A stretch of DNA of 5,183 bases from an uncultured Flavobacteriales bacterium (GTDB lineage Bacteria; Bacteroidota; Bacteroidia; Palsa-965). The stretch lies in the NCBI GenBank assembly GCA_946478675.1, contig CAMLEF010000322.1, positions 1 to 5,183 on the forward strand, written 5' to 3'. How positions within the stretch are numbered: the first letter of the stretch is position 1; each line of letters opens with the position of its first letter. Both the position numbers and the translations under genes were made by a program. Shown piece after piece: positions 204 to 5,183 of the stretch. Below the pieces are notes generated by a model. That model had not been told where the DNA came from, did not search any database, and worked only from the letters and a program-made list of their open reading frames with translations.

Positions 204-746
204 ATGCGAAAAATTATTCTCGATCTCGCTGTCAGTCTCGATGGAATGATCGAAGGTCCCAACGGTGAATACGATTGGTGCATTATGGAGCCCGACATGA
301 ACTTCGACAAGTTCCTCGCGGAAACGGATGCGGTGTTTTACGGAAGGAAAAGCTACGAGCTCTTCGGCAGTCAGCAGCCGGAAACATTCGGCTCTGACCT
401 GGAACGCGAAGTATATGAATCGGTGAGCCGCAAGAAAAAATATGTTTTCTCCCGGACGCTAACAGCAGCAGGCGACGCGACGATCGTCGGCGGGAATATC
501 GAAGAGGAAGTGAAGAAGATCAAAGCGATGCCGGGAAAAAATATCTGGCTCTTCGGTGGCGCTTCTCTGGTAACGGATTTCGTAAACGCAGGCCTGGTCG
601 ATGAATATCGTCTCAGTGTGCATCCGATCGTGCTGGGCAGCGGGAAGCCGTTGTTCCAGGATATCAAGCAGCGTGTGAAGCTGAAGCTGGTGCGTTCGGA
701 GACTTTTTCTTCCGGCGTGATCCAGCTGTATTACCAGCCGGAGTAG
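204..746 (+). CDS. Dihydrofolate reductase-fold family protein (RibD C-terminal domain type)
   Basis: This 180-residue protein is a single RibD C-terminal/DHFR-like domain of the kind found in YwjB/YyaP-type proteins. It begins MRKIILDLAVSLDG, the first strand and the conserved SLDG turn. A WxxxEPDMNFDKFL helix lies near residues 25-38, and the TDAVFYGRKSYE segment at 41-52 is the family's (M/Y)GR(K/R)(S/T)YE signature. GGN at 96-98, WLFGGASLV at 115-123 and HPIVLGSGKPLF at 140-151 complete the nucleotide-binding fold. The members are probably NADPH-dependent reductases, but most have no proven substrate, and true trimethoprim-target DHFR (FolA) is a different branch. I chose ATG 204 because conservation starts there; a TTG at 99 would add 35 unconserved residues. 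No Shine-Dalgarno is present, only an A-rich leader. The stop lies one base from that of the convergent MgtC-family gene. Confidence 0.9.
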   Translation: MRKIILDLAVSLDGMIEGPNGEYDWCIMEPDMNFDKFLAETDAVFYGRKSYELFGSQQPETFGSDLEREVYESVSRKKKYVFSRTLTAAGDATIVGGNIEEEVKKIKAMPGKNIWLFGGASLVTDFVNAGLVDEYRLSVHPIVLGSGKPLFQDIKQRVKLKLVRSETFSSGVIQLYYQPE

Positions 747-747
747 A

Positions 748-1383
748 TCAGAACTCGAACGCGAGAATCCGCTCGTCTTTCAGCAGCAGGTCCGTCAGCC
801 GCTCGTGATTTTTGACCGAGCCCTGCAGTTCCCAGTAGCCGGTGATCTTTCCTTCGGCACGGCTTTGTTTTCCGCGATGCACTTTGAGGTTGTGCTGGCG
901 GAACAACTCTTCGTAATGGTACAACGTTTCCTGCTCGAAGTCGCAAACGATCTTGTACGAACGCGCCTGGTTGAGATCGTCGATGAGCTTTTCCAGCCTG
1001 GTGAAGCCCATCAGCACCACCACGATAACGACCGAAGAAGATGCGCAGAGCACGTATTCGCCGGAACCAACGCCCACGCCGATCGCCGCCGCCATCCAGA
1101 TCGTCGCTGCAGTCGTTACGCCTTTCACGTGATCGCTCGCGCGGAAAATTGCGCCCGCACCGAGAAAGCCGATGCCCGTCACGATATTCGCCGCAATACG
1201 ATCGGCGTTGTTCGGTCCGCCGAGGCGAATGGAAAACAAAGTGAAAAGCGCGGAGCCGACCGTCACGAGAATGATCGTGCGAAAGCCGGCAGATTTGGAA
1301 CGATACTCCCGTTCTGCGCCGATGATCGCACCGAACAAAACGGCGAGACCGAGTTTGATGAAATCTTCCTGCGCGAAATCCAT
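748..1383 (-). CDS. MgtC/SapB family membrane protein
   Basis: The 211-residue product shows the MgtC/SapB signature throughout. GAIIGAEREYRSKSAGFRT (18-36) is followed by VTVGSALF (40-47), then TGIGFLGAGAIFR (69-81) and VKGVTTAATIWMAAAIGVGVG (86-106). Five hydrophobic segments, near 9-22, 36-52, 64-80, 88-105 and 110-127, make it an inner-membrane protein. The remaining 80 or so residues are a charged soluble domain, matching the ACT-like cytoplasmic tail of longer family members. MgtC of Salmonella affects virulence, low-magnesium survival and ATP synthase; most homologues in environmental bacteria are uncharacterised, so magnesium or acid-stress adaptation is only a guess here. It lies 82 bases downstream of the carboxylase gene in the same direction and could be co-transcribed. 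A long heptamer-repeat hairpin ends nine bases before its ATG. Confidence 0.92.
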   Translation of the reverse strand: MDFAQEDFIKLGLAVLFGAIIGAEREYRSKSAGFRTIILVTVGSALFTLFSIRLGGPNNADRIAANIVTGIGFLGAGAIFRASDHVKGVTTAATIWMAAAIGVGVGSGEYVLCASSSVVIVVVLMGFTRLEKLIDDLNQARSYKIVCDFEQETLYHYEELFRQHNLKVHRGKQSRAEGKITGYWELQGSVKNHERLTDLLLKDERILAFEF

Positions 1384-1391
1384 GAGAGTCG

Positions 1392-1461
1392 GGAGTTTGG
1401 AGTTGGGAGTTCGGAGTTGGAAATGTTAGCAGGAACACTCCGAACTCCGGACTCCAAACTC
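1392..1461. repeat. Long inverted repeat with arms of tandem GGAGTTN heptamers
   Basis: The left arm (1393-1417) and right arm (1437-1461) match as reverse complements at 23 of 25 positions around a 19-base loop. The left side consists of four exact GGAGTTN heptamers (1392-1419); the right side, read on the minus strand, gives GAGTTT, GGAGTCC, GGAGTTC, GGAGTGT. On the minus strand it begins four bases after the carboxylase stop and ends nine bases before the MgtC-family start. Neither side has a T-run, so it is not a standard intrinsic terminator. It could act as a factor-dependent terminator, an RNA-stability element or an extragenic palindrome. Confidence 0.85.
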
Positions 1462-1465
1462 AGCG

Positions 1466-3007
1466 CTATAACGGGATGTTACCGTGTTTCTTCTGCGGCA
1501 GCTTGTCGGCTTTGTTCTTCAGCATTTCGAACGCAGCGATGAGCTTGGCACGCGTGTCCTCGGGAACGATCACTTCATCGACGTAACCGCGCGCGGCAGC
1601 CATGTACGGGTTGGCGAATTTCTCGAGGTATTCGGTTTCTTTTTCCTTCAGCTTGGCTGCCGGATCTTTTGCAGCAGAAATTTCATTCTTGAAGATGATC
1701 TCCGCAGCGCCTTTCGCGCCCATCACGGCAATCTCTGCCGACGGCCACGCGTAGTTCATGTCGGCGCCGATGTGCTTCGAGTTCATCACGTCGTAAGCGC
1801 CGCCGTATGCTTTGCGCGTAATGACGGTGATGCGCGGAACGGTCGCTTCGCAGAACGCATACAGCAGCTTTGCGCCGTTGGTGATGATCGCGTTCCATTC
1901 CTGGTCGGTGCCGGGCAGGAAGCCGGGAACGTCTTCGAACACGAGCAGCGGAATGTTGAATGAATCGCAGAAGCGCACAAAACGCGCGGCTTTCGTCGAG
2001 GCGTGAATGTCGAGTACGCCGGCGAGCACGGCAGGCTGGTTCGCCACGATGCCGATGCTTCTTCCGCCGAGACGCGCGAAACCGACAACGATGTTCTCCG
2101 CGAAATTCTTGTGCACTTCGAGGAACGAATCCGCGTCGATCACGTGTTCGATGACTTCACGAATATCGTAAGGCTGGTTCGGGTTGGCGGGAATGATATT
2201 GTTGAGCGCCGTACGTTTTTCATTCGCGGCTTCATAGGGAAGCACAGGCGCATCGTCTTCGCAGTTCTGCGGCATGTAACCGACCAGCGCGCGGATCGTC
2301 TGCAGGCATTCGACTTCGTTAGCCGCAGCAAAATGCGTGACGCCGGATTTGCTCGCGTGGGTCATTGCGCCGCCGAGCTCTTCGGAAGTGACTTCTTCGT
2401 GCGTCACCGTTTTCACCACGTTCGGGCCGGTCACAAACATGTACGACGTGTTCTCGACCATGAGAATGAAATCGGTGATCGCGGGAGAATAAACCGCACC
2501 GCCGGCACAGGGTCCCATGATCGCGGAGATCTGCGGCACCACACCCGAAGCGATCGTGTTGCGGTAAAAAATATCTGCGTAGCCGCCGAGCGAAACCACA
2601 CCTTCCTGGATGCGCGCGCCGCCCGAATCGTTGAGGCCGATCACAGGTGCGCCGTTTTTCATCGCGAGATCCATGATGCGGCAGATCTTCTCTGCGTGCG
2701 TTTCCGAAAGCGAGCCGCCGAAAACGGTGAAGTCCTGCGAAAACACATACACCAGCCGACCGTTGATGCGGCCGTAACCGGTCACGACGCCGTCGCCGAG
2801 GTATTTTTCTTTGTCCAAACCGAAATCGGTAGCGCGGTGCGTCACGAGCATGCCGATCTCTTCGAATGATCCGTCGTCGAGCAGGAAGTGCAGGCGTTCA
2901 CGCGCGGTGAGCTTGCCCTTTTTATGCTGTGCGTCGATGCGTTTCTGACCGCCGCCGAGTTGGGCTTCGGCGATCTTATCATGGAGCGTTTGGAGCTTGT
3001 CTTTCAT
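1466..3007 (-). CDS. pccB: Acyl-CoA carboxylase carboxyltransferase (beta) subunit, propionyl/methylmalonyl-CoA type
   Basis: The 513-residue protein has the normal length and full two-domain crotonase-fold layout of PccB-like carboxyltransferases. The enzyme moves a carboxyl group between biotin on a carrier protein and propionyl-CoA, giving methylmalonyl-CoA. Domain 1 carries [12 protein letters not shown] (125-136) and [13 protein letters not shown] (164-176), which form the first CoA and oxyanion site. Domain 2 carries [14 protein letters not shown] (357-370), [11 protein letters not shown] (398-408) and [18 protein letters not shown] (420-437). Asp406, in GGAYDVM, sits where PccB enzymes are reported to have a propionyl-selecting aspartate, but I have not aligned it. 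ATG 3007 is chosen because [11 protein letters not shown] is the family's usual N-terminus; an extension to 3073 would cross the promoter-like element. No biotin carboxylase or BCCP gene is in the window. Methylmalonyl-CoA decarboxylase alpha subunit (MmdA) is a close relative and remains an alternative. Confidence 0.93.
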
Positions 3008-3023
3008 AGGAGGAAATTGTTTG

Positions 3024-3053
3024 CGAAGATAGCTATTAAGGGAATGTTGGCAA
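3024..3053 (-). promoter_or_regulatory. Candidate Bacteroidota promoter of the carboxylase gene
   Basis: Read on the minus strand, TTG (3053-3051) is followed after exactly 19 bases by TATCTTCG (3031-3024). This fits the Bacteroidota TTG-N19-TAnnTTTG pattern with one mismatch in the -7 box. Transcription would start near 3018, leaving a leader of about ten bases before the ATG at 3007. The upstream hairpin at 3110-3172 would separate it from the acetyltransferase gene. The call was made by eye. Confidence 0.45.
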
Positions 3054-3109
3054 CGCTGTGAGAACTGCGGCAAGGATGGGGAAGATGGTGCCCTGGTGAA
3101 GCTGTCGGA

Positions 3110-3172
3110 CAGTCGGCAGTCTTCAGTTGGCAGTCATTCGCAATACGACTGACAACTGAAGACCGACGACCG
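3110..3172. repeat. Long inverted repeat with arms of tandem CAGTYNN heptamers
   Basis: The left arm (3110-3135) and right arm (3147-3172) match as reverse complements at 22 of 26 positions around an 11-base loop. Two of the four mismatches become G-U pairs in minus-strand RNA. The left arm is CAGTCGG, CAGTCTT, CAGTTGG, CAGTC; the right arm, read on the minus strand, is CGGTCGT, CGGTCTT, CAGTTGT, CAGTCG with the same seven-base period. It starts one base after the acetyltransferase stop codon. No T-run follows on either side, so a plain intrinsic terminator is unlikely, though a 3'-end function fits the position. Confidence 0.83.
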
Positions 3173-3173
3173 A

Positions 3174-3707
3174 TCAAACCGACTTTCCGTACAACAGCGC
3201 GTCGATGAACTGGCCGTTCTTGAGGAATGCTTTGCTGCGGATGCCTTCCTGCGTAAATCCGTTTTTCACGAGCAACCCGGCAGAAACAGGATTCGTTGCG
3301 TATACCGTGGCATCGAAGCGCGTGAGCTTGCGCACATTCTTTCCGTATTCGAGCAGCACCGGCAACGCAGCCGACATGATGCCCTGCCCGCGGAACGGCG
3401 CCGCTACCCAATAGCCGATCTCATCGCGGTGCGCCGTCGCAGGAAGCGTGTTGAAGCCGAGAAATCCCGCACCGCCGCGCATCGAGCCGTCCTTCGCGCG
3501 AATGACGAAGTTCAGCGGGTGACCGAATTTCTGTTCCTGCTCCTTGCAGTAACTGACGAACCACTTCGCGTCTTTTTCCGTGTACGGATGCGGAACGTTC
3601 AGCGTTTGCCGGAACAGCTCGAAGTCGTTCATGTATTCCACGTACGAAGGAATGTCGCGCTCTTCCGGCGGCGAGAAATACAGCTCCTCGTTAATGGGGA
3701 TTTGCAT
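3174..3707 (-). CDS. GNAT family N-acetyltransferase, RimJ/RimL type
   Basis: The 177-residue protein is a single GNAT domain that would transfer an acetyl group from acetyl-CoA to an amine. The pyrophosphate-binding loop RGQGI (106-110), preceded by EIGYWVAAPF (96-105), is the motif A core of this fold. DATVYATNPVSAGLLVKNGF (132-151) is the following strand and helix typical of the RimJ/RimL and SpeG-like branch, in which NxxSxxLxxKxGF is a hallmark. The N-terminal SPPEERDIPSYVEYMND (12-28) matches the usual first strand and helix. Substrate cannot be deduced: members acetylate ribosomal protein N-termini, polyamines, aminoglycosides and other small molecules. The start at 3707 is the only ATG before conserved sequence, and the length is normal. 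The gene starts 18 bases beyond the T-run of the upstream terminator, and I found no convincing promoter in between. A heptamer-repeat hairpin follows directly after the stop. Confidence 0.9.
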   Translation of the reverse strand: MQIPINEELYFSPPEERDIPSYVEYMNDFELFRQTLNVPHPYTEKDAKWFVSYCKEQEQKFGHPLNFVIRAKDGSMRGGAGFLGFNTLPATAHRDEIGYWVAAPFRGQGIMSAALPVLLEYGKNVRKLTRFDATVYATNPVSAGLLVKNGFTQEGIRSKAFLKNGQFIDALLYGKSV

Positions 3708-3815: not shown

Positions 3816-5183
3816 TTAGAAGTCGAGGTGAATGCCTGCTGCGAAAGGATACACCGTCGGGCCTTTTTCTTTCTCGAAAAGCGTCGAGAGCGAATACGTG
3901 CCGAAGATGGAGAACTTGCCGTAACCGATGCGCACGATCGCGTCGTAGCGGAACGGGTTTACGTTGAAGTCATCTTTCACTTTGCGCTTGTACGTGTGAC
4001 CGTCGAGCTCGTATTTCTGCTTCAGCTTATTGTTGAAGACGTTGTACCCGAATTGCATGCCGGCGCCGATGTGGAACGAGCGGGATGCATCGTCGTTGTT
4101 GGTGTTGAACTCGAGGAACAGCGGCACGTTCACGTAGCACATGTTGAGGCGGTTGCGCGAATAGTGCATCGAATCGTTGATCGCCGTTACTGCCGGCATC
4201 TGCGGCTGCAGCGTGTACGAGTTGCGGAAGTTGTAGTGATACCAGGTGAGACCGATGCCGGTGCCGAGGTTCACATTGTTGCGGTAGATGTGAATGTTTT
4301 TCTGGAAAGCGTTCCAGCCGAACATGTACGACTTCGCGTAATTCAGGTTCATGAATTCGTTGGTGCCGGTGAAGTCGAGCTGGTTGTTCGAGTTGAGATA
4401 ACCGTTGATACCGACGTCGAAACCGCCCCAGTATTTGAAGTCTTCGTCATCCGCTTTTTTCTCGCGCTTCGAACGCTCATCGTCGTTTTCCGTAATGTTG
4501 AAGTTGTACGGTCCGACGTGGATGTTGGTCGTGTCGGAAGTGCTGCTGCCGTCGACGTTGCGCATGCTCACCGAGCTCGAGCCGTTCGCGTTGATGACTT
4601 TTTCTGCCGGCGTGCCCTGGTAAGTGATGTCGGATGCGCCGTTCGCTGTAGCGTTGATCGACTGCGAAGCGGAAACGTGTGCGCTGGATGCGCCGCTGGC
4701 GACTACCGTTGCGCGTTCGGTCTGCAGGTTGTATGCTTTGAGCTCGCAGGCGCCGGAGAGTACCGCGTCGAGACGCGAAGCGGTGCCGGTCAGTTTGCTT
4801 TCGCAGGCGCCGCTCAGGCGGACATTAACGGAAGTGGCCTGTACGTTCAGCTTCGTTTGCGCTGCGCCCGTACCGATGACGGTCAGCGAATCGGTGATCA
4901 ATTGGTTGCTGGACGTTACTTCGGTCGCGCCGCTGACGTCGATGTAGTTCAGTTTCTTCAGCGTGACCTTCACCTTCGTGTCATCGTCGATGCCTTTCAT
5001 GCTCTCCGCTTTGATCACGAGCACGCCGTTCTCGACGTTGGTGGAAATGCTTTTCGCGGCGTTGTTGTCTTCCGCTTCGATCGTCACGGAGCAGGCGTCG
5101 CCTTGCGTGAGCTCGATGTGGAGCGGGGAAACGGAGCGCACGCCGTTAAATTCGCCCGGCGTGCGGGTATCGTTGGTTCCCTG
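3816..5183 (-). CDS. GIN-domain (DUF2807) surface protein with C-terminal outer-membrane beta-barrel, 5' partial
   Basis: The reading frame is open to the right edge, so the signal peptide and true start are missing; 455 codons are visible. Residues 10-210 are a GIN domain (putative autotransporter adhesin head). It opens with GEFNGVRSVSPLHIELTQGD and then shows a turn motif such as SGA, NGA or TGA every 19-20 residues (about 84, 105, 124, 143, 163, 181, 201), as expected of a right-handed beta-helix. A short charged linker, DDERSKREKKADDEDF, lies near 234-249. Residues 250-455 have alternating aromatic and polar strands (for example NLGTGIGLTWYHYNF, FHIGAGMQFGYNVF, YDAIVRIGYGKFSIFG), and the chain ends in AGIHLDF with a terminal phenylalanine, the pattern of an OmpA/PorT-like outer-membrane barrel. 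Exposure of the helix by the barrel is inference, and ligand and role are unknown. A GTG at 5141 is in frame but internal to the domain, so it is not the start. An intrinsic terminator follows. Confidence 0.85.
   Translation of the reverse strand, partial: QGTNDTRTPGEFNGVRSVSPLHIELTQGDACSVTIEAEDNNAAKSISTNVENGVLVIKAESMKGIDDDTKVKVTLKKLNYIDVSGATEVTSSNQLITDSLTVIGTGAAQTKLNVQATSVNVRLSGACESKLTGTASRLDAVLSGACELKAYNLQTERATVVASGASSAHVSASQSINATANGASDITYQGTPAEKVINANGSSSVSMRNVDGSSTSDTTNIHVGPYNFNITENDDERSKREKKADDEDFKYWGGFDVGINGYLNSNNQLDFTGTNEFMNLNYAKSYMFGWNAFQKNIHIYRNNVNLGTGIGLTWYHYNFRNSYTLQPQMPAVTAINDSMHYSRNRLNMCYVNVPLFLEFNTNNDDASRSFHIGAGMQFGYNVFNNKLKQKYELDGHTYKRKVKDDFNVNPFRYDAIVRIGYGKFSIFGTYSLSTLFEKEKGPTVYPFAAGIHLDF

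What the first reader, a model, noticed from the sequence alone, without database searches (positions are those of the whole stretch)
1392..3172. Two sequence-unrelated palindromes built to the same plan of heptamer arms right after stop codons
The inverted repeats at 1392-1461 and 3110-3172 share a design. Each has arms of 25-26 nt, made of nearly four tandem 7-nt units with a common NNAGTYN core. Each begins one or four bases after the stop codon of a minus-strand gene, and neither is followed by a T-run. The heptamer sequence differs (GGAGTTN versus CAGTYNN), so this is not simple copying of one element. A period-7 repeat inside a palindrome suggests either an element that grows by slippage and is kept for its fold, or a family of mobile or extragenic palindromes. 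I recall similar AGTT-rich intergenic tracts in Bacteroidota genomes, but I cannot verify this here.
Basis: partly seen in the sequence, partly recalled or inferred. Interest (0 to 1): 0.72.

Follow-up and report, generated by a model that had tools for sequence, protein, structure and literature searches.

The report
Seven-base repeat hairpins between genes
Between some genes of this Bacteroidota bacterium lie hairpin-forming sequences built from seven-letter repeats that start with AGT; many related genomes carry them, nearly always pointing the same way and often starting right at a gene's end, which suggests a common but little-described kind of gene-end punctuation.

Summary
Both palindromes are real (arms 25 nt, 92% complementary; 24 nt, 88%), far beyond chance, and lie within 1-4 nt of the stop codons of the PCCB and GNAT genes, with no T-run. 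They share one format: AGTYNNN at period 7, AGT strand pointing inward. No whole genome is held for the window, so relatives were used. Such palindromes occur in 103 of 296 sampled Bacteroidota genomes and in 111 of 120 genomes of the Mucilaginibacter genus (2731 placements, overlaps counted) against 13 placements of opposite polarity. In 65 placed palindromes of that genus the stop-codon side lies at a median of 4 nt. At one convergent gene pair all 28 comparable gaps fold into a hairpin and 22 keep the period-7 core, while words differ between many species. At the window's own PCCB 3' site, three of eight relatives carry ordinary U-tract terminators and one another heptad palindrome. Best reading (about 0.5): two-way, U-tract-less gene-end hairpins that block 3' decay and/or end transcription. 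Folding does not explain the polarity. Against: no sense-strand preference, weak arm co-variation within genomes, many arrays between divergent genes in one relative. No transcript data were available.

The parts
1387..1417 (+). Palindrome 1, AGT arm (five AGT cores at period 7; paired part 1393-1417)
1418..1436 (.). Palindrome 1, loop (19 nt)
1437..1461 (-). Palindrome 1, ACT arm (AGT heptads on the minus strand)
3112..3135 (+). Palindrome 2, AGT arm
3136..3146 (.). Palindrome 2, loop (11 nt)
3147..3170 (-). Palindrome 2, ACT arm (one AGT core changed to GGT)
1466..3007 (-). Carboxyl transferase gene (PCCB-like); stop codon 4 nt from palindrome 1
748..1383 (-). MgtC-family gene; start codon 9 nt from the paired arm of palindrome 1
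3174..3707 (-). GNAT acetyltransferase gene; stop codon 1-3 nt from palindrome 2
3026..3053 (-). Promoter-like site TTGCCA-16-TATCTT upstream of PCCB, downstream of palindrome 2 (3 such sites found in the window, 1.9 expected, so weak evidence)

Best explanation
The two palindromes belong to a class of intergenic elements widespread in Bacteroidota. Each has two arrays of AGTYNNN-type heptads that face each other, AGT strand inward, and so form a hairpin, often starting right at a stop codon. Most likely they work in RNA as two-way gene-end hairpins without a U-tract: the mRNA of the gene just ended folds the element into a stable stem that stops 3'-to-5' exonucleases and/or helps RNA polymerase to stop; being a palindrome, the element does the same for transcripts from the other side. 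The heptad make-up lets both arms gain or lose units and still pair, so the fold survives while words change. SHOWN: the elements, their number in relatives, polarity, position in one genus, hairpin potential, and a hairpin in all 28 comparable gaps of one orthologous site. INFERRED: action in RNA, the exonuclease or termination step, slippage as source of turnover. NOT EXPLAINED: why AGT is on the 5' arm.
For: All 28 comparable orthologous gaps fold (z -2.6 to -12.0) and own arms beat the mean of cross-species arms in 28 of 28 (17.0 against 9.5; 10 of 28 exceed the 95th percentile of cross scores). 22 of 28 keep the (A/G)GT period-7 core, 0 in the wrong polarity, shuffles 1.1 on average. In 65 placed palindromes of the genus the stop side has median 4 nt, the start side 34 nt; in tandem pairs the stop side is nearer in 31 of 45 (p 0.016). 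Convergent over divergent 14:6 against 34:45 (p 0.044). Three of 8 relatives of the window have U-tract terminators after PCCB and one a heptad palindrome. Stem-loops favouring convergent gaps and the 50 bp after stop codons are known from other bacteria (PMC1590033, passages), as are U-tract-less hairpin 3' ends that stabilise RNA (PMC13289151, passages).
Against: No sense-strand preference in fold energy (24 of 45, p 0.90). Own arms not clearly better matched than same-genome swapped arms (40 of 70, p 0.074; 16 of 29, p 0.59). RNAalifold on 7 orthologues: 7 of 22 pairs with two-sided changes, but an unfavourable covariation term, +1.61. Polarity is not predicted by folding. In G075, 14 of 34 placed arrays lie between divergent genes, some palindromes filling the gap between two start codons. 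No T-run of 4 after the second arm in 0 of 45 tandem sense sides, so not an ordinary intrinsic terminator.
Confidence: 0.5

Rival explanations
1. DNA-level punctuation: the AGT heptads are direct-repeat sites for an unknown protein that binds one site per 7 bp in a fixed orientation. Arrays facing inward from gene edges act as orientation-specific roadblocks or insulators; the palindrome is a by-product of two facing arrays with the same words.
For: Polarity 2731 against 13 placements. Single arrays also have the ACT end nearer the gene edge, start or stop (46 of 61). No sense/antisense difference in folding. Arms not clearly matched beyond shared words.
Against: 6 of 28 orthologous gaps keep a hairpin without the period-7 core. 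Apparently single arrays often have a weak complement on the inner side (score 11 or more in 20 of 96 against 1 of 96 outside), so pairing seems to matter. No candidate protein was sought.
Confidence: 0.2
2. REP-like or MITE-like selfish palindromes spread by an HUH (Y1) or other transposase, landing mainly between genes because insertions in genes are lost.
For: Palindrome number correlates with Y1_Tnp number over 120 genomes (rho 0.44; per Mb 0.38). In G010 palindromes sit in dispersed repeats with constant flanks (by eye). The palindrome of L253 has 78-80% matches elsewhere in G012 and related genomes.
Against: 0 of 20 sampled Y1 genes are flanked by a heptad palindrome within about 1.5 kb (1 has a single array). 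Genomes with 45 and 20 placements have no Y1 match (assemblies may be incomplete). The element is in place at the orthologous site of many species.
Confidence: 0.15
3. Neutral heptad slippage with hairpin-templated correction: the arrays are by-products of replication errors tolerated between genes.
For: Period 7 and its multiple 14 dominate the lags tested. PMC4679880 (passage) reports length differences mostly in 7-nt steps between cyanobacterial strains.
Against: Slippage predicts both polarities and even decay over the seven positions; observed are strict polarity and AGT kept while neighbours vary (matches listed, though these were selected for AGT). The column conservation of lag-7 tracts (0.62 to 1.0) is inflated by their selection and not decisive.
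Confidence: 0.13

Closest known systems
TAACTGA (reverse TCAGTTA) heptamer direct repeats of Beggiatoaceae, cyanobacteria and five Bacteroidetes (PMC4679880; passages and section 12 read)
   Same: Intergenic 7-nt direct repeats with an AGTT core on one strand; in F. litoralis 12 of 14 sets run forward before a start codon and one set lies reversed right after a stop codon, the same edge rule as here
   Different: One fixed word; almost no inverted pairs reported (one indirect repeat in the BOGUAY genome); mostly at start codons. Here words vary, arrays face each other as hairpins, and stop codons dominate in one genus
Intrinsic (Rho-independent) terminators
   Same: Stable hairpin right after the stop codon; the same PCCB site carries U-tract terminators in L162, L165, L167
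   Different: No U-tract; arms made of heptads; fixed AGT polarity
REP elements and RAYTs (PMC3733652, passages)
   Same: Many dispersed extragenic palindromes; hairpins that can stabilise RNA
   Different: No GTAG/CGTC tag searched or seen as a family feature; copies are not one conserved sequence; Y1 genes not flanked by them in 20 of 20 sampled
Cyanobacterial STRR heptanucleotide repeats (recalled; only listed)
   Same: Intergenic heptad tandem repeats
   Different: Not compared here

Membership tests
Canonical intrinsic terminator | Stable GC-containing hairpin after the gene | tested here: met
   z -7.3 and -8.9 on the sense (minus) strand
Canonical intrinsic terminator | U-tract directly after the hairpin | tested here: not met
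   None at either window palindrome; 0 of 45 tandem sense sides and 3 of 28 convergent sides have a run of 4 T within 12 nt
Canonical intrinsic terminator | Transcripts end there | not testable with these tools
   No RNA data
TAACTGA heptamer repeats | 7-nt direct tandem repeat between genes | tested here: met
TAACTGA heptamer repeats | Unit TAACTGA/TCAGTTA | tested here: not met
   Units in the window are GGAGTTN- and CAGTYNN-type
REP/RAYT | Palindrome flanks a Y1 (RAYT) gene | tested here: not met
   0 of 20 sampled Y1 loci in relatives; the window's genome could not be searched
REP/RAYT | GTAG or CGTC tag at one end | not tested
   No scan for tags was made
MITE | Target-site duplication and empty sites | not tested
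   No strain-level relatives were compared
AGT-heptad palindromes as described here | AGT at period 7, AGT arm 5' and ACT arm 3' | tested here: met
   Both window palindromes; palindrome 2's second arm has one GGT, so it falls short of the strict three-core pattern

The most novel reading that the evidence does not exclude
Bacteroidota use a polar punctuation code at gene edges: arrays of AGT at 7-nt spacing, pointing from the gene into the gap, are read as DNA or nascent RNA by an unknown heptad-spaced protein that stops transcription leaving a gene or fixes its RNA end. The hairpin follows when both edges carry an array, and the other four bases of each heptad are nearly free.
Probability: 0.25. 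Interest if true: 0.87.

Novelty: new variant of a known kind. Interest (0 to 1): 0.62.

Why it matters
If these are common gene-end signals of Bacteroidota, terminator finders that require a U-tract miss them, and operon maps for the phylum need revision. The polarity (2731 against 13 placements in one genus) is a clean, testable clue to an unknown reader or maker. Change of words with retention of format offers a natural experiment on how folded noncoding elements evolve.

Tried and rejected
Rfam: only sub-threshold microRNA hits (best mir-22, 26.7 bits against a gathering score of 48), taken as chance hairpin resemblance. A CAGT-only palindrome pattern over 61 genomes of G010's family found 0: too strict. 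Integron attC sites were considered from memory only and set aside; no integrase search was made. In-register arm pairing was tested twice and not clearly supported. REP/RAYT was tested and its flanking feature not met, although counts correlate. ACT arms abutting TATNTTTG boxes in G075 were seen by eye and not counted; the box is recalled. The 86 opposite-polarity placements in 8 of 296 phylum genomes (my sum) include self-complementary ACTAGT words in G334 (33) and simple-repeat tracts in G438 (32); G463, G389, G320 and G293 look like real exceptions.

Limits. Gene calls are my own longest-ORF calls without ribosome-site models. AGT strands often hold stop codons, which shortens apparent stop distances: of 73 stop sides 21 overlap the array and 41 lie 0-15 nt away. 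Arrays, species and repeat families are not independent, so p-values are guides. Counts are placements; one palindrome can give several. Samples of G009, G075, G071 and G076 were mostly taken around listed AGT matches, those of G010 from contig starts. The 70 Mucilaginibacter loci come from capped match lists; 4 of them were taken because they resemble the L253 palindrome. AGT is not the only core: the reversed pattern TGAx3..TCAx3 has 285 placements in 69 of 120 genomes (control column, summed), some perhaps the same elements through TGAGT words. In one search, G009 (16 of 25) and G071 (7 of 10) alone are not significant. One search left out 35 arrays inside called genes and 19 at locus edges; one search left out 7 and 1.

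Full report
What is there. The window carries RibD_C (204-746 +), MgtC (748-1383 -), PCCB-like carboxyl transferase (1466-3007 -), GNAT (3174-3707 -) and DUF2807/beta-barrel (3816-5183 -) genes. Both inverted repeats are confirmed and far beyond chance by motif (7 matches against 0.02 expected) and by fold (0 of 200 shuffles as stable for either strand of either one). They lie in the PCCB-MgtC and GNAT-PCCB gaps, 4 nt and 1-3 nt from the stop codons, without a T-run. In both, the order is AGT arm, loop, ACT arm.

Where it lives. No whole genome is held for the window. A DNA search placed the window near an order of 12 held genomes, the closest PCCB at 77-80% nucleotide identity. In 8 PCCB loci of that order DUF2807 lies beside PCCB in 6 and GNAT in 3. 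AGT x4 period-7 arrays: 7 of 10 genomes of the order have a match; G076 has 40 against 1 for the reversed control and G075 102 against 110. The control is as high as or higher than the pattern in G071, G074, G075, G078 and G080, so there the count alone proves nothing. Of 12 genomes reached through PCCB loci 10 have matches, strongest G010 (405 against 2), G012 (318 against 62) and G009 (110 against 9). By lag analysis without any motif, lag 7 exceeds each of lags 4-13 and 15 in samples of five genomes, lag 14 coming close or, in G075, above it; G075 also has 21 lag-8 tracts. Of these only the G010 sample (298 kb) was not chosen around matches. In the 80 PCCB loci lag 7 gives 15 tracts, lag 14 18, lag 8 10, and in 400 kb of G012 lag 7 gives 8 against at most 5 for any other lag tested.

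Polarity. Facing pairs of AGT x3 arrays within 90 nt: 31 AGT>..<ACT and 0 opposite in the five samples, 15 of them in G010, where repeat families are shared. With a pattern of 18 fixed bases: 111 of 120 genomes of the Mucilaginibacter genus, 2731 placements (summed), against 9 of 120 and 13 placements for the opposite polarity (my sum). Reversed-pattern controls: 104 placements for the first search and 285 for the second. Phylum sample: 103 of 296 genomes against 8 of 296. The ACT end is nearer a gene edge, start or stop, for 83 of 105 arrays and for 46 of 61 unpaired ones.

Position. 65 palindromes from 61 of 70 loci of the genus could be placed between two called genes. Stop side: median 4 nt, 62 of 73 at 15 nt or less, 21 of them overlapping the array. 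Start side: median 34 nt, 21 of 57 at 15 nt or less. 45 are tandem, 14 convergent, 6 divergent, against 99, 34 and 45 gaps of 60-400 nt in the G012 sample (convergent against divergent p 0.044). In G075 the placed arrays were 14 divergent, 17 tandem, 3 convergent, and some palindromes fill the gap between two start codons.

Orthologous site. One convergent gene pair was searched in 120 genomes of the genus; 117 had a match and 30 loci were kept. 28 gaps were usable, the query's own included; in the other two the pair is not adjacent. All 28 fold (z -2.6 to -12.0 against 40 mononucleotide shuffles each), and own arms score above the mean of cross-species arms in 28 of 28 (17.0 against 9.5), 10 of 28 above the 95th percentile of cross scores. 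22 of 28 show the (A/G)GT period-7 core at 8 of 9 or better in at least one arm in the usual polarity (19 in both), 0 in the opposite one; 200 shuffled sets average 1.1, at most 5. Words differ between many species, while close ones (L269-L271; L274 and L275) carry recognisably the same element. The other six gaps keep a hairpin without that core. So the hairpin is what all share at this site, and heptads are the usual way of building it.

The window's own site. After the PCCB stop, L162, L165 and L167 have hairpins followed by T-runs, L161 a long inverted repeat without one, L168 a TTGGCAA heptad palindrome; in L163, L164 and L166 no such repeat was listed near the stop (fold z -3.6, -0.7, -1.8). 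A heptad palindrome thus stands where some relatives have ordinary terminators, which fits a gene-end role but does not prove one.

Results against. The sense strand is not more stable in tandem cases (24 of 45, p 0.90). Own arms are not clearly better than same-genome swapped arms (40 of 70, p 0.074; 16 of 29, p 0.59). RNAalifold on seven orthologues gives 7 of 22 pairs with two-sided changes but a covariation term of +1.61. Fold alone cannot explain the polarity. Palindrome number correlates with Y1_Tnp number (rho 0.44), though 0 of 20 sampled Y1 genes have a heptad palindrome beside them and two genomes with 45 and 20 placements have no Y1 match.

Known work. PMC4679880 (passages and section 12) describes TAACTGA heptamers in Beggiatoaceae, cyanobacteria and five Bacteroidetes; in F. 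litoralis 12 of 14 sets run forward before a start codon and one lies reversed right after a stop codon, the same edge rule. PMC1590033 (passages): stem-loops favour convergent gaps and the 50 bp after stop codons. PMC13289151 (passages): U-tract-less ends and stabilising hairpins. PMC3733652 (passages): REP and RAYT. PMC7366714 (passages): Bacteroides terminators predicted with TransTermHP and RNA-seq. In searches of an open-access library I saw no listed paper on AGT-heptad palindromes or their polarity in Bacteroidota; subscription papers are mostly absent from that library and most listed papers were not opened.

Verdict. A real pair of elements that opens onto a widespread, polar, little-described class. 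The gene-end hairpin reading is best at about 0.5; the polar-reader reading is the most interesting one left open.

Noticed in passing
L172, L174, L175, L179, L181, L182, L184, L186, L188 (G010): Heptad palindromes sit in dispersed repeats with constant outer flanks but at least three different loop sequences, as if modules were exchanged at the heptad arrays (by eye).
   Followed up: partly
L209-L228 and L167 (G075): Besides heptads, 21 lag-8 tracts (such as AAGTTGAA and ATCAGCAC units) occur in the sampled stretches.
   Followed up: no
L210, L218, L224, L226, L227 (G075): AGTGACA-type arrays occur in long one-way tracts without a facing arm.
   Followed up: no
L212, L214, L215, L221, L222 (G075): The ACT arm often runs directly into TATNTTTG-like sequence (recalled Bacteroidota promoter box) and a start codon (by eye).
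   Followed up: no
L001 7508-7831: A 324-nt period-7 tract of CAAGTTC-type units lies about 1 kb beyond the PCCB gene of the relative G001.
   Followed up: no
window 731-1438 - and 1263-1457 -: Open frames through palindrome 1 read LPTPNSQLQTPDSH and SELPTPNSRLS; stop-free heptads stay open in all frames and may give spurious predicted proteins.
   Followed up: no
L278, L291, L295, L298: At the orthologous convergent gap some species have hairpins with AAGTCCG-like units of about 8 nt instead of 7 (by eye).
   Followed up: no
120 genomes of the Mucilaginibacter genus: Heptad palindrome number correlates with the number of Y1_Tnp matches (rho 0.44), though the genes are not adjacent.
   Followed up: partly
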